A DNA stretch of 64,000 bases from Candidatus Thiodictyon syntrophicum. GTDB lineage: Bacteria > Pseudomonadota > Gammaproteobacteria > Chromatiales > Chromatiaceae. The DNA lies in assembly GCF_002813775.1 (NCBI RefSeq), contig NZ_CP020370.1, positions 2,877,501 to 2,941,500 on the forward strand, read 5' to 3'. A program made the translations under genes and the position numbers. The notes under the pieces were generated by a model, which was not told where the DNA came from, made no database searches, and saw only the letters and a list, made by a program, of their open reading frames with translations. The stretch's first letter is position 1, and the number at the start of each line of letters is the position of its first letter. This document shows positions 32,991 through 62,852 of this stretch, in pieces.

Positions 32991-33063
32991 CGTTGTCGTT
33001 GTCGTTGTCGTAATCGAATAATCCGACCACGATTACGACAACGACAACGACAACGACAACGAC
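32991..33063. repeat. Hexamer palindrome element, copy A (no core)
   Basis: Three GTTGTC units plus GTAATCG (32991-33016) are perfectly inverted at 33030-33055, where four GACAAC units continue to 33063. This gives a 26-bp perfect stem with a 13-base loop. Unlike copies B-D it lacks the 52-base core. Confidence 0.9.
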
Positions 33064-33657
33064 GCCCGGTCCGTGAGAACGTCCGGTAGCGGTAGCTGTA
33101 GGGTAAACCGATGCGTACCCTCACGAAGCCCGTGTCCAAGGCATAAACCTCGACCAAATGTATAGTACGGTAGCAGGATGTGGCGCGTAACCCCGGCCTC
33201 GATCGTCGTTCCGGCCGCGACCGGCGATCGGCGTAGGGTGCGCCGCGCGCACCTTGTGCTGAGACGCACCGGCATCGCGGTGGCACGGGTGCGCGCGGTG
33301 CACCCTACGGGCTTTCCGGCCGGAACGACGAGCGAGGCCCGTGTGACCCCGAACTGCCCCCGCCGCCGGCCCCGCCAGAGGCTTAAGTCACCAAATGCGA
33401 GGGGCGAGGCAGCGCCCGCGTCTCCAGACACCAGCCGACCGACCCGCGGCGATCCCCAGACCGCCGCCGCCCGGTTGCGGTGAAGGCCCTCAATCAGCAT
33501 TATGGGCGGATCGGCGTCGATCATCGCCCCGGCGATCCCGCGAGCGGCGGGGTCCCCGGGCGATTTCCGGAAGGCCTCATACGAAAAGGAGCGCGGGCGT
33601 TCCGCCCCCGGTGGTGAAGCCGTCGGGGCGGGACGCCCCGACTCCCAAGGAACCGAC
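33064..33657. other. Gene-free repeat region upstream of ovoA
   Basis: About 590 bases with no supported gene. It contains the nested palindrome at 33195-33339 and short GC palindromes close to ovoA (for example 33631-33651, GTCGGGGCG / CGCCCCGAC). The ovoA promoter should be here, but none is evident. Confidence 0.4.
33195..33339. repeat. Nested palindrome, family 1, with different inner palindrome
   Basis: Outer arms 33195-33216 (GGCCTCGATCGTCGTTCCGG) and 33318-33339 are inverted with 21 of 22 matches. The inner pair (33233-33253 and 33288-33308, GTAGGGTGCGCCGCGCGC / inverse) differs from the GTGGAC palindrome of the copies at 8.2 and 15.5 kb. Confidence 0.85.
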
Positions 33658-35769
33658 ATGACCACACCACTGCTGACCCGCACCCCCAGGCTCGACGGCG
33701 ACGACCCGCAGGCCAAGCGCCTCGAGATTTACGACCATTTCATCGCCACCTTCGACCGCTACGAGTCGCTTTTCGACACCCTGGCGACGGCGGACGCCTA
33801 CTACCGCAAGCCGATCGCGCTGCGGCACCCGCTGATCTTTTATTTCGGCCACACTGCCACCTTCTTCGTCAACAAGCTGGTCCTGGCCGGACTCCTGGAG
33901 CAGCGCATCGAGCCCCGGTTCGAGTCGATGTTCGCGGTCGGCGTGGACGAGATGGGCTGGGACGATCTCGACGAGTCCAACTACGACTGGCCCTCCGTGC
34001 AGGCGGTGCGCGACTATCGCAACCGGGTGCGGCACGTGGTCGGCGGGCTGATCGAGCGCCTGCCGCTCACCCTGCCGATCGGCTGGGACAGCCCCTGGTG
34101 GCCGATCCTGATGGGCATCGAGCACGAGCGGATCCACCTGGAGACGTCCTCGGTGCTGATCCGCCAGCAGCGCCTGGACCTCGTGCGCACCGACCCGGCC
34201 TGGGCCCCCTGCCGGGAAACCGGTGAGCCGCCGCCCAACCAACTGCTGCCGGTTCCCGCCGGCACCGTGCAGTTGGGCCAGGACCAGGCGAGCGACCCCT
34301 GGTACGGTTGGGACAACGAGTACGGCACCCACGAGGCGGAGGTCCCGGCCTTCGCGGTGGCGCGGATGCTGGTCTCCAATCGGGAGTTCCTGGCCTTCGT
34401 GGAAGCCGGCGGCTATGAGGACGACGGCTGGTGGACGGCGGAGGGCCTGGCCTGGCGTCAGTTCAGCCTGGCCCGCTACCCGAGCTTCTGGGTCCCGGAG
34501 CCGGCCGGCTGGCGCCTGCGCCTGATGCTGGAGGAGGTGGCCATGCCCTGGAACTGGCCGGTCGAGGTCAACTATCACGAGGCCCGGGCCTTCTGTCAGT
34601 GGCAGTCGGCGCGGACCGGCGCGGCGGTGCGCCTGCCGACCGAGGACGAGTGGTATCGGCTCTATGACGCGGCCGGGGTGGCCGAGGTGCCGACCGAGGG
34701 GCCGGGACCGGCCAATCGACACCTGGACCACTGGGCGTCCTCCTGCCCGGTCGATCGCTTTCGGCACGGGGACTTCTGCGATGTGGTCGGGAATCTGTGG
34801 CAGTGGACCGAGACCCCCATCTATCCCTTCGCCGGGTTCCGCGTCCACCCGCTCTATGACGACTTCACCACTCCCACCTTTGACGGGCGCCACAACCTGT
34901 TCAAGGGCGGGTCCTGGGTGTCCTGCGGCAACGAGTCGCTGCGCAGTGCCCGTTATGCCTTCCGTCGCCACTTCTTCCAGCACGCCGGCTTTCGCTATGT
35001 GGTCGGGGAGGCCCCCGGCCTGCCGCCCGCCTCGCACTACGAGTCGGATCGGCAACTCTCCGAGTACGCCGAATTCCACTATGGCGCCGAGTATTTCGGC
35101 GTACCCAACTTCCCCAAGGCCGTGGCGGACCTGGCGTTGCGCTGTGTCGGTGACCGGGCGCTGGGCCGCGCCCTCGACCTGGGCTGCGCGGCCGGGCGTT
35201 CGTCCTTTGAACTGGCGCGGCGTTGCCCGGACGTGATCGGCATCGACTTCTCGGCCCGGTTCGTCGGGCTGGGCGTGCAGATGGCAGGGGAGGGGGTCTT
35301 GCGCTACACCCTGGTGGAGGAGGGCGAACTGGTCTCCTGGCGCGAGGTCCGGCTCCAGGACCTGGGGCTCGAGGGGGTGCGCGAGCGGGTCGCCTTCGTC
35401 CAGGGTGACGCCTGCAACCTCAAGCCCCAGTTCGTAGGCTTCGACCTGATCCTGGCCGCCAACCTGATCGATCGGCTTTACAGTCCGGCGCTGTTCCTGG
35501 GCAGCGTCCATGAGCGGCTCAATCCCGGCGGACTGCTGGTCCTCGCCTCCCCCTACACCTGGCTCACGGAGCACACCCCGCGGGAGGAATGGCTGGGCGG
35601 CTTCAAGCGCGACGGGGAGAACGTGACGACGCTCGACGGGCTCAAGGCGGTGCTGGGCAGCCATTTCCGACTCATTGAAGGGCCGGTGGAGATCCCGTTC
35701 GTGATCCGCGAAACCCGGCGCAAGTTCCAGCACAGTCTCTCCGAGGTGACGGTGTGGGAGCGGCGGTGA
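33658..35769 (+). CDS. ovoA: 5-histidylcysteine sulfoxide synthase / ovothiol biosynthesis
   Basis: 703 residues from an ATG preceded by AAGGA. Three domains in OvoA order: DinB-like with iron ligands His65 (FGHTATFF) and His156/His160 (IEHERIHLE), a SUMF1-like oxygenase domain (about 195-460; RLPTEDEWYRLYD, GNLWQWTETP, GGSWVSCGNESLRSARYAFR), and a C-terminal SAM methyltransferase (LDLGCAAGRSS near residue 507). The enzyme joins cysteine to the 5-position of histidine with O2, and the third domain N-methylates the thiohistidine to ovothiol A. The family is cytoplasmic. No dedicated lyase gene is adjacent, but a PLP enzyme of the MalY/PatB type lies 440 bases downstream. Confidence 0.93.
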   Translation: MTTPLLTRTPRLDGDDPQAKRLEIYDHFIATFDRYESLFDTLATADAYYRKPIALRHPLIFYFGHTATFFVNKLVLAGLLEQRIEPRFESMFAVGVDEMGWDDLDESNYDWPSVQAVRDYRNRVRHVVGGLIERLPLTLPIGWDSPWWPILMGIEHERIHLETSSVLIRQQRLDLVRTDPAWAPCRETGEPPPNQLLPVPAGTVQLGQDQASDPWYGWDNEYGTHEAEVPAFAVARMLVSNREFLAFVEAGGYEDDGWWTAEGLAWRQFSLARYPSFWVPEPAGWRLRLMLEEVAMPWNWPVEVNYHEARAFCQWQSARTGAAVRLPTEDEWYRLYDAAGVAEVPTEGPGPANRHLDHWASSCPVDRFRHGDFCDVVGNLWQWTETPIYPFAGFRVHPLYDDFTTPTFDGRHNLFKGGSWVSCGNESLRSARYAFRRHFFQHAGFRYVVGEAPGLPPASHYESDRQLSEYAEFHYGAEYFGVPNFPKAVADLALRCVGDRALGRALDLGCAAGRSSFELARRCPDVIGIDFSARFVGLGVQMAGEGVLRYTLVEEGELVSWREVRLQDLGLEGVRERVAFVQGDACNLKPQFVGFDLILAANLIDRLYSPALFLGSVHERLNPGGLLVLASPYTWLTEHTPREEWLGGFKRDGENVTTLDGLKAVLGSHFRLIEGPVEIPFVIRETRRKFQHSLSEVTVWERR

Positions 35770-35920
35770 GCAAAGCGCAATACCGCTACGCTGCGGTGTC
35801 GCCTGTGATGGGTTCCGCTGCGCTCTACCCATCCTACGTGTCCAACCGCTTTGTCCCATGCGGGCACCGGCGCCCGCAACCGGCGGCATCCGCAGCCCCG
35901 AAGGCGCCCGACATACCAGC

Positions 35921-61924: not shown

Positions 61925-62155
61925 GGGGATCTCCAGAGGGCGCGAAGAATTGGGAAACACAGGGGGGCGCGAGCCATCGCAAACCGGGGCGACGCATCCT
62001 TGCGGGATGATAGCGACCCTCTGTGACCGCACCATTGCGGGCGGATGACGAACTGCCGACCCACATCCGGCCATTGCTCACGCCAGGTCGGCAAGCTCGC
62101 CAGGAAATACCATCGTCTTGAAGCGGGCGCGGCCCGGCTGGGGACGCTCTTGCGT

Positions 62156-62617
62156 TCAGGGGGCCGGGCTGAAGTCTTGAAGATAGGGGTTGTCGGTGCG
62201 CCGCTGAATCTGGAGATAGGGCCGGTTGGCGGCCTTGTGGCAGCGATTGCAGGCGGCCAGAAGGTCATCGTAGGCCGTGTCGACGCGGCCCTGATCACCC
62301 ACCTCGACCGCCTGTTCCAGGGCCTCGAAGGCGGGCGTCAGGTTGGCGGTGAGGAGTCTGCCGATCGCGATCCCGTCGCACTCCTCGATCTTCTCGACCT
62401 CCTCGATCACCTCCTCCACCTCATGAACATAAAAGCCCTGGAGCGGCCGGTTCTGGGCACTGACCGCCAAACCCAGCTTGTGCACATAGTATTGGAGCCG
62501 CCCCATCCAGGCGACCAGGCCCGAATCAGGTTCACTCGTCGCACCCGCCACGGGCAAGGACAAGGCGCCCAGCAGCACGAGGTGAAAGGCAACGATTCGA
62601 TTCTGTTTCATCGACAT
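62156..62617 (-). CDS. Monohaem c-type cytochrome-like periplasmic protein
   Basis: 153 residues from the ATG at 62617; an ATG 6 bases later is also possible. A signal peptide (to about residue 25) is followed by a helical domain and a single haem attachment site CNRCH (Cys123, Cys126, His127) followed by KAANRPYLQIQ. The AACNxCHKA..PYL pattern is found in small secreted haem proteins of purple bacteria that resemble cytochrome c' without its full bundle. It may carry electrons or bind a ligand. Upstream of and same strand as the PhoX gene, 231 bases apart, so probably a separate transcript. Confidence 0.78.
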   Translation of the reverse strand: MSMKQNRIVAFHLVLLGALSLPVAGATSEPDSGLVAWMGRLQYYVHKLGLAVSAQNRPLQGFYVHEVEEVIEEVEKIEECDGIAIGRLLTANLTPAFEALEQAVEVGDQGRVDTAYDDLLAACNRCHKAANRPYLQIQRRTDNPYLQDFSPAP

Positions 62618-62705
62618 GTCTCGACAGTCTCCAGGTTTAAGGGATCGCAGCCCGCGCGTCACCCGACGGCTGAGCCATGGCATCGTCTCCTGTTGCGACG
62701 TGCCT

Positions 62706-62852
62706 GTCGTTGTTGTCGTTGTCGTAATCGTTGTCGTCGTCGTCATAATCGAGGTTACCGTAGCGCCCCGGATTCTCTCGCACCCCAAAATACATCGCTT
62801 ATCCGATTACGATTACGACAACGACAACGACAACGACAACGACAACGACAAT
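62706..62852. repeat. Hexamer palindrome element, copy D (reverse orientation)
   Basis: Left arm 62706-62751 with degenerate GTTGTC/GTCGTC units, core 62752-62803 (the reverse complement contains GAGAGAATCCGGGGCGCTAC), right arm 62804-62852 with six or more GACAAC units. The longest copy. It ends 2 bases before the HAD gene stop codon. Confidence 0.9.

What the first reader, a model, noticed from the sequence alone, without database searches (positions are those of the whole stretch)
32991..62852. Four-copy element: hexamer-microsatellite palindrome around a conserved 52-nt core
Elements at 32991-33063, 44882-44976, 51379-51490 and 62706-62852 each have arms of GTTGTC units ending in GTAATCG, inverted as CGATTACGACAAC units. 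Three share a roughly 52-nt core (consensus around AAGCGAT, then GGTGCGAGAGAATCCGGG, then ACGATnACCT), and the fourth has lost it. Arm length varies from about 3 to more than 6 units, so the stem is both a palindrome and a length-variable microsatellite. All lie between genes; copy D ends 2 bases before a stop codon. A stem that lengthens by slippage could tune termination or mRNA stability. The core could be a protein site or a small RNA.
Basis: partly seen in the sequence, partly recalled or inferred. Interest (0 to 1): 0.72.

Follow-up and report, generated by a model that had tools for sequence, protein, structure and literature searches.

The report
Shared hairpin inside unrelated mini-transposons
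The four repeats belong to two families of tiny non-coding transposon-like elements that share one repeat-built hairpin, and the same hairpin stem sits inside differently bounded elements in other bacterial phyla, so the hairpin seems to be a part that is passed between unrelated elements.

Summary
The palindromes are real, but they are only the middle of larger elements. Copies B, C and D are one MITE-like family (type I: 52-nt core, inexact ~26-bp end repeats, TNA target). Copy A did not lose that core: it is a second family (type II) with a 13-nt core, a 22-bp terminal repeat and 9-bp target duplications. In 2.06 Mb of this 7.74-Mb genome there are 64 type I and 38 type II copies, and 101 of 104 hexamer tracts lie in them. 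Arms differ in length in 3 of 3 orthologous pairs aligned; left and right lengths are uncorrelated. Two type I/II chimeras were seen. The same stem occurs in Planctomycetota, Desulfobacteraceae and Opitutales MAGs and other Chromatiaceae, with other loops and mostly other ends. Best reading: non-autonomous DNA transposons carrying a slippage-prone hairpin cassette exchanged between element families. Movement by transposase is inferred; no autonomous partner was found. A role in mRNA processing is untested. A string search of held papers found the stem in no bacterial paper.

The parts
32950..33125 (+). copy A: type II element; left end, arms and core present, right terminal repeat not found
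   Evidence: model R2 hit G000:C1:2910450-2910625, E 1.5e-37; left end repeat at 32950, no partner
32950..32971 (+). type II terminal repeat, GGGTGCGATCAGAACTGATGTG-like; it contains the TGA stop of ORF 32188-32967
32992..33016 (+). left hexamer arm of copy A
33017..33029 (+). type II 13-nt core AATAATCCGACCA
33030..33063 (+). right hexamer arm of copy A
44882..44976 (+). copy B: type I arms and core, no outer end recognised
44902..44954 (+). type I core of copy B
   Evidence: nhmmer E 1.6e-15
51349..51542 (+). copy C: near full-length type I element, both outer ends recognised (X end partly degraded)
   Evidence: model R1 hit G000:C1:2928849-2929042, E 1.5e-34; X 51350-51380, Y 51540-51487
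51408..51456 (+). type I core of copy C
   Evidence: nhmmer E 4.1e-11
51487..51540 (-). type I Y end of copy C; the stop codon of the CorA-like gene 51540-52859 uses its last base
62706..62852 (-). copy D: type I arms and core in reverse orientation, no outer end recognised; ends 2 bases before the stop of the HAD-like gene 62855-63598
62752..62803 (-). type I core of copy D
   Evidence: nhmmer E 5.3e-15

Best explanation
The four sites are copies of two families of miniature, non-coding, transposon-like elements (complete copies about 140-280 bp). Each family has its own terminal inverted repeats and its own kind of target site (type I: TNA; type II: 9-bp duplication); this was shown here. 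They were most likely moved in trans by DDE transposases that read the outer ends (inferred). In the middle both carry the same hairpin cassette: (GTTGTC)n, then GTAATC units, a loop, and the inverse. The arms gain and lose hexamers, presumably by replication slippage (length differences between orthologues shown; mechanism inferred). Because the arms are alike in all copies they can act as places of exchange, so that ends and loops are reshuffled, also between families (two chimeras seen; mechanism inferred). The same stem, with other loops and other ends, occurs in genomes assigned to four phyla, so the stem is a cassette common to MITE-like families with different ends. In transcripts the stem would form a duplex of roughly 15 to 30 bp, a possible RNase III substrate or 3'-end block. 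Type I sits preferentially at the 3' ends of genes, so a mild effect on mRNA processing is the most likely consequence for the host (inference, untested).
For: Conserved outer ends around type I and type II. Of 64 type I copies 49 show at least one recognised outer end and 17 both; 36 of 38 type II copies show at least one end repeat and 17 both. Type II duplication: 17 pairs, 77% identity over 9 bp against 33% between mismatched pairs, 3 exact; 0 of 100000 permutations for the central 7 bp (30 offset and length settings were printed). Type I target: TNA outside 22 of 35 X ends and 18 of 34 Y ends. Arms differ in 3 of 3 orthologous pairs aligned. GTAATC-like units are next to the core in 100 of 122 type I arms and in 1 of 97 at position 4. 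Chimeras at 840429 and 1920947. Other phyla: 43 stretches in genome contigs; 1-18 exact copies in each of 9 genomes picked from those hits, reversed control 0 in all 9. Planctomycetota: end repeat (GG)CCTGGTTCA, found as a pair in 7 of 12 loci, with 8-bp duplications (77% against 28%, 1 of 5040 permutations, 4 of 7 exact, best of 20 settings). TTGTCAGYGMAGCG lies beside the arms in 3 of 12 Planctomycetota, 4 of 10 Desulfobacteraceae and 1 of 1 Opitutales elements, in 0 of 21 Chromatiaceae elements, and nowhere else in the 300 kb of these loci. Context: type I 2 divergent of 61; type II 17 divergent of 33; background 24-27%.
Against: No autonomous partner: no end-repeat pair enclosing a transposase in 2.06 Mb at the thresholds used; transposases in the rest of the genome could only be listed, not read. 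The type I 3-bp duplication is weak: 13 pairs, 67% against 53%, p 0.0245 uncorrected for 4 lengths tried, 2 exact. Of 64 type I copies 15 have no recognised outer end, as have B and D in the window, so a smaller arms-plus-core unit might move by itself. No clean empty site: the one candidate (G002 at L014) is too diverged to show the joint, and the 5 own copies covered by G006 alignments are all shared (3 aligned, 2 by position), though those contigs were picked for holding elements. For 18 of 35 non-Thiodictyon elements no end repeat beat the best of 20 shuffles, so 'different ends' is firm only for type I, type II, Planctomycetota and the Thiorhodococcus/Thiocapsa family. By eye the Opitutales flank (TTAGTAACGGGTC) resembles the type I X end, so that family may not be unrelated. 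No transcript data.
Confidence: 0.76

Rival explanations
1. The hairpin (arms plus loop) is itself the mobile or copied unit, spreading by insertion or template switching into the middle of different MITEs and sometimes into plain intergenic DNA.
For: 15 of 64 type I copies lack a recognised outer end; the same stem lies in elements with different ends in several phyla.
Against: Most copies keep an outer end in register (49 of 64 type I, 36 of 38 type II), and the clear duplications flank the outer ends, not the arms. None of 11 Y1 transposase loci carries the arms.
Confidence: 0.25
2. The arms are an RNA element kept by selection: a long hairpin at gene ends that RNase III or another enzyme cuts or that blocks 3' decay, with length tuned by slippage.
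For: Strong folding of all four window copies (z -5.5 to -9.2); type I avoids divergent gaps (2 of 61), and its ends lie within 30 bp of a called stop in 29 of 68 cases, against 15% of candidate TNA sites. Known MITEs are cut by RNase III (passages of PMC10969869).
Against: Left and right arm lengths are uncorrelated (rho -0.14 and 0.00), so stem length is not held. Orientation towards co-directional genes is mixed (25 same, 18 opposite). Type II prefers divergent gaps (17 of 33), which does not suit a 3'-end function. Some of the nearby stops are made by the element itself.
Confidence: 0.3
3. Chance convergence: hexamer slippage makes such palindromes again and again in different genomes.
For: Plain (GACAAC)n tracts do arise elsewhere: the three plasmid hits looked at (Rhodococcus, Streptomyces, Cupriavidus; 3 of 4 records) are one-sided tracts.
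Against: The ordered stem, GTTGTC outside and GTAATC inside and inverted on the other side, recurs 1-18 times in each of 9 genomes against 0 for the reversed pattern (these genomes were chosen because they had a hit). An extra 14-nt motif is shared by three phyla. In an even sample of the class 1 of 369 genomes, this one, has the stem, so it is not made readily.
Confidence: 0.06
4. REP/BIME-type elements moved by RAYT (Y1) transposases.
For: Palindromic, extragenic, many copies; 11 Y1_Tnp matches in the genome.
Against: No arms in any of the 11 Y1 loci, about 3.3 kb each; target duplications and long end repeats; complete copies 141-277 bp against 20-40 bp for REPs (abstract of PMC3733652 in the listing).
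Confidence: 0.03

Closest known systems
MITEs of bacteria (NEMIS/Correia, ERIC, RUP, Nezha and others)
   Same: Short, non-coding, many copies, terminal inverted repeats, target duplications, mostly intergenic, fold as RNA hairpins
   Different: Two families with different ends share a central hexamer-repeat hairpin, and that stem recurs in elements of other phyla; the string search found it in no bacterial paper held
hupL MITE family of Candidatus Thiomargarita nelsonii (passages of PMC4853749)
   Same: Very many MITE copies in a large sulfur-oxidising gammaproteobacterium; inverted repeat with direct repeats; no parental insertion sequence found in ISfinder
   Different: That paper describes 10-bp direct and 19-bp inverted repeats; its sequence was not compared here, and 'hexa' has 0 occurrences in its main text
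REP/BIME elements (GTAG and CGTC families)
   Same: Extragenic palindromes; loops vary while stems persist
   Different: No RAYT link seen; long end repeats and duplications; 'GTTGTC' and Chromatiaceae have 0 occurrences in the main text of PMC3733652
BOX elements of Streptococcus pneumoniae (modular with variable unit number; recalled)
   Same: Modular small repeat with a variable number of internal units
   Different: Here the variable unit is a hexamer in both arms of a palindrome, and the module is shared between families with different ends

Membership tests
MITE (non-autonomous DNA transposon) | terminal inverted repeats | tested here: met
   type II 22-bp repeat at both ends in 17 of 38 copies; type I X and Y ends are inexact inverted repeats over ~26 bp, both present in 17 of 64
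MITE (non-autonomous DNA transposon) | target site duplication | tested here: met
   type II 9 bp; Planctomycetota relative 8 bp; type I 3 bp only weak, p 0.0245 uncorrected
MITE (non-autonomous DNA transposon) | short, non-coding, many copies | tested here: met
   type II pairs 141-277 bp, type I pairs 158-244 bp; 64 and 38 copies in 2.06 Mb; too short for a transposase
MITE (non-autonomous DNA transposon) | autonomous element with the same ends | tested here: inconclusive
   none in 2.06 Mb; 54 DDE_Tnp_1 matches in the genome listed but loci not cut out; DDE_Tnp_1_2 none; other transposase families not tried
MITE (non-autonomous DNA transposon) | empty sites in relatives | tested here: inconclusive
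   G002 lacks the L014 copy but the joint is diverged; the 5 own copies covered in G006 are shared
REP/BIME moved by RAYT | association with a Y1 (RAYT) transposase | tested here: not met
   0 of 11 Y1_Tnp loci carry the arms
IS5-type MITE (TNA target and family name recalled) | TNA target preference | tested here: met
   22 of 35 X and 18 of 34 Y ends; cognate transposase not found, so not filed as a member
intrinsic terminator | GC-rich hairpin followed by a T run | tested here: not met
   0 sites in 32900-33520; 4 in 44850-51600, none at B or C; D not scanned
known structured RNA (Rfam 15) | match at gathering score | tested here: not met
   0 matches in the 64-kb window

The most novel reading that the evidence does not exclude
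The stem (GTTGTC)n-GTAATCG is a cassette with a life of its own. It has crossed four bacterial phyla, sits in the middle of MITE-like families with different ends and different target duplications, and is kept because its sequence, not only its fold, is read by something common to these cells (an RNase, a nucleoid protein, or a recombination system that copies it between elements). MITEs would then be assembled from exchangeable parts: ends that set mobility, and a shared hairpin that sets tolerance or spread.
Probability: 0.34. Interest if true: 0.82.

Novelty: new variant of a known kind. Interest (0 to 1): 0.63.

Why it matters
MITEs are usually thought to descend each from one insertion sequence, so their middles should not be shared by families with different ends. 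A stem conserved in sequence across phyla while loops and ends change implies exchange of parts between elements, or selection on the stem. Either is testable, and might help explain how non-coding elements reach hundreds of copies. The arms could also serve as length markers for typing these bacteria.

Tried and rejected
Copy A as a decayed copy of the same family: rejected. A single family with four copies: rejected. Three end-repeat pairs 1.0-2.8 kb apart as autonomous transposons: each is made of the ends of two separate known elements; the 2772-bp one encloses ABC transporter and nucleotidyltransferase genes, the 1024-bp one a Uma2 gene; the gene in the 1390-bp one was not searched. RAYT/REP origin: no arms at 11 Y1 loci. 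Plasmid hits in Rhodococcus, Streptomyces and Cupriavidus: the three looked at are one-sided tracts, not palindromes; type I gave no plasmid match. Arms held equal in length: rejected. Core as a structured RNA: not supported. Viral contigs and phages: no match; reversed control also none, so that scan says little. Exact coincidence of type I with stop codons: only 5 of 69 ends, so only a general preference for 3' ends is claimed. End repeats outside Thiodictyon: 18 of 35 elements gave none better than the best of 20 shuffles, and some that did (for example L209, L216, L249) matched sequence other than the element ends; so ends are not claimed for Desulfobacteraceae, Thiocystis, Thiobaca and Lamprocystis. 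That script stopped with an error before the second element of L233 and before L238 and L239.

Copy numbers include partial matches and are limited by the 150 candidates scored per genome. Of 30 copies printed, 18 were used for the models (11 of 17 type I, 7 of 13 type II).
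Full report
What was checked. The four sites were read directly. The arms are there as described, except that C has one substitution in its right arm. The window lies at G000:C1:2877501-2941500 of a 7.74-Mb genome in three contigs. Size and contig number fit Thiodictyon syntrophicum Cad16T, whose abstract gives 7.74 Mbp (listing) and whose text names one chromosome and the plasmids pTs485 and pTs417 (passages). That identification is an inference.

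Copy number. BLAST with copy B gave 40 full-length or near full-length copies, 40 of 366 first-look candidates having been scored. Two exact-arm patterns gave 54 and 62 sites per strand (their spacer ranges overlap, so they are not to be added). I then fetched C1:1-2,000,000 and searched it and the window, 2.064 Mb, with nucleotide profiles. There are 112 clusters of features: 64 with the 52-nt type I core, 38 with the 13-nt type II core, 10 with neither. Of 104 clusters that hold a hexamer tract of two or more units, 101 also hold a core, so the microsatellite is almost confined to these elements.

Two families. The flanks of 30 type I loci show conserved outer sequence: end X, GTAACGAGTCAAGAACAAGTTAAACACAATCG, and end Y, GGAACGGTTCACTAATAAGTTAAACAAGTCCATTAG and on. 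X and Y are inexact inverted repeats of each other over about 26 bp. Of 64 type I clusters 17 have both ends, 32 have one, 15 none. The triplet outside is TNA at 22 of 35 X and 18 of 34 Y ends; duplication of that triplet is weak (13 pairs, 67% against 53%, p 0.0245, uncorrected). Type II copies have the terminal repeat GGGTGCGATCAGAACTGATGTG: 36 of 38 have at least one, 17 both. They are flanked by 9-bp duplications (77% identity against 33% for mismatched pairs; 3 of 17 exact; 0 of 100000 permutations for the central 7 bp). Copy A of the window is type II (model hit 32950-33125); C is type I (51349-51542); B and D are type I without recognised ends.

The arms. Counted outward from the core, GTAATC-like units are first in 100 of 122 type I arms and fall to 1 of 97 at position 4; the rest are GTTGTC-like (6 of 128 arms had no unit). 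Type I arms run from 0 to 16 units, type II from 0 to 11; left and right are uncorrelated (type I n=64, rho -0.14, p 0.25; type II n=38, rho 0.00). In the sister genome G006 three orthologous loci were aligned. Cores are near identical and the arms differ by one hexamer (231 kb), by 12 and 6 nt (L017), and by 12 nt plus a 3-nt difference (L004). Two elements combine a type II core with a type I end (840429 and 1920947), as expected if the shared arms let families recombine; they were not checked by reads.

Gene context (own simple gene caller; no annotation was at hand). Type I: 61 of 64 intergenic, in 43 co-directional, 16 convergent and 2 divergent gaps. Type II: 33 of 38 intergenic, in 12 co-directional, 4 convergent and 17 divergent gaps. 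Background gaps of 100 bp or more: 24% divergent by number, 27% by length; p 1.8e-6 and 0.003 for the divergent share against 27%. Type I ends lie within 30 bp of a called stop in 29 of 68 cases, against 15% of candidate TNA sites; some of these stops are made by the element itself, so this is not proof of targeting. Only 5 of 69 ends coincide exactly with a stop codon. The orientation of type I towards co-directional genes is mixed (25 same, 18 opposite).

Structure. All four window copies fold far better than shuffles (z -5.5 to -9.2); the type I core alone folds worse than its shuffles. No T run follows the hairpins at A, B or C. One promoter-like match spans the arm and core of copy A (TTGTCG, 18 nt, AATAAT); it is a lead only. 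No Rfam family matches in the window.

Spread. With exact arms, 4 of 38 relatives searched have the palindrome, all of this genus: this genome, G005, G006 and G007. With the looser models type I matches 7 of 8 genus genomes and type II 7 of 8; G001 has none of either. In an even sample of the class 1 of 369 genomes, this one, has it; the sample held no other genome of the genus. A scan of one genome per species (genome contigs, own genome apparently left out) found 43 stretches. By record title these are 12 Planctomycetota, 10 Desulfobacteraceae, 1 Opitutales (Verrucomicrobiota) and 20 Chromatiaceae (Thiodictyon 8, Thiorhodococcus 4, Thiocystis 2, Thiobaca 2, Thiocapsa 2, Lamprocystis 1, unnamed 1). 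Nine genomes behind nine of these loci hold 10, 18, 12, 2, 5, 4, 12, 2 and 1 exact copies, and 0 of the reversed pattern (chosen because they had a hit). Loops differ between groups. Clear end repeats: (GG)CCTGGTTCA in Planctomycetota, paired in 7 of 12 loci, with 8-bp duplications, and CTAGTGC...GAGACC in Thiorhodococcus and Thiocapsa. In the other groups end repeats did not clearly exceed shuffles or were not the element ends (18 of 35 elements below the best of 20 shuffles). The Opitutales element has an inner end match (22 against 19), and by eye a flank like the type I X end, so it may be a relative of type I. The motif TTGTCAGYGMAGCG lies beside the arm in 8 of 23 elements of the three other phyla, in 0 of 21 Chromatiaceae elements, and nowhere else in the 300 kb of these loci. 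The GC content of the non-Chromatiaceae loci (0.38-0.61) is below that of the Thiodictyon loci (0.63-0.70), which speaks against simple misbinning, though Planctomycetota loci and some other Chromatiaceae overlap (0.59-0.61).

Partner. No end-repeat pair enclosing a transposase was found in 2.06 Mb (the three pairs 1.0-2.8 kb apart are made of separate elements). The genome has 54 DDE_Tnp_1 matches, whose flanks outside the fetched part could not be read. None of 11 Y1 loci has the arms.

Literature. A string search for four pieces of the stem found 5 papers, all on plants (listing). Passages of the review PMC10969869 describe RNase III cutting of Correia elements and effects of ERIC elements at the 3' ends of genes. 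Passages of PMC4853749 describe a highly repeated MITE in Thiomargarita without a known parent. Passages of PMC3733652 describe REP families; 'GTTGTC' and Chromatiaceae have 0 occurrences in its main text. The genome paper PMC5944118 has 0 occurrences of 'transpos', 'insertion sequence' and 'mobile'. Further searches gave no title or abstract start that describes such elements. This covers only the open-access library held; supplements were not searched.

Verdict. These are MITE-like families, a known kind. What is unusual is a common, slippage-prone hairpin stem carried by families with different ends, within this genome and across phyla.

Noticed in passing
own genome, type II right half (for example window 33064-33125): The right half of complete type II copies carries a second small palindrome (GGGTACGCATCGCGTACCC-like) and a variable GTAGCT hexamer run, in short and long forms.
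   Followed up: no
G000:C1:411144, 1187059, 1682371: Type II-like end repeats followed by sequence without arms, perhaps another family with related ends.
   Followed up: partly
G000:C1:659621-659864 and 1308892-1309168: Arms in which a variant unit (GTGGTC or GACCAC) has expanded to six or more copies on one side only.
   Followed up: no
window 32993-33022: Promoter-like TTGTCG-18-AATAAT across arm and core of type II; type II is enriched in divergent gaps.
   Followed up: no
G001 against the other genus genomes: One genus member has no match to either model while four genomes have over a hundred type I matches each: very uneven expansion.
   Followed up: no
L218 (Opitutales MAG) beside the arms: The flank CTTAGTAACGGGTC resembles the type I X end CTTAGTAACGAGTC (by eye), a possible link between type I and an element in another phylum.
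   Followed up: no
G006 contig ends: Several G006 matches lie at contig ends (for example C16:4-42 and C125:2-40), so these hairpins seem to break assemblies and copy counts there may be low.
   Followed up: no
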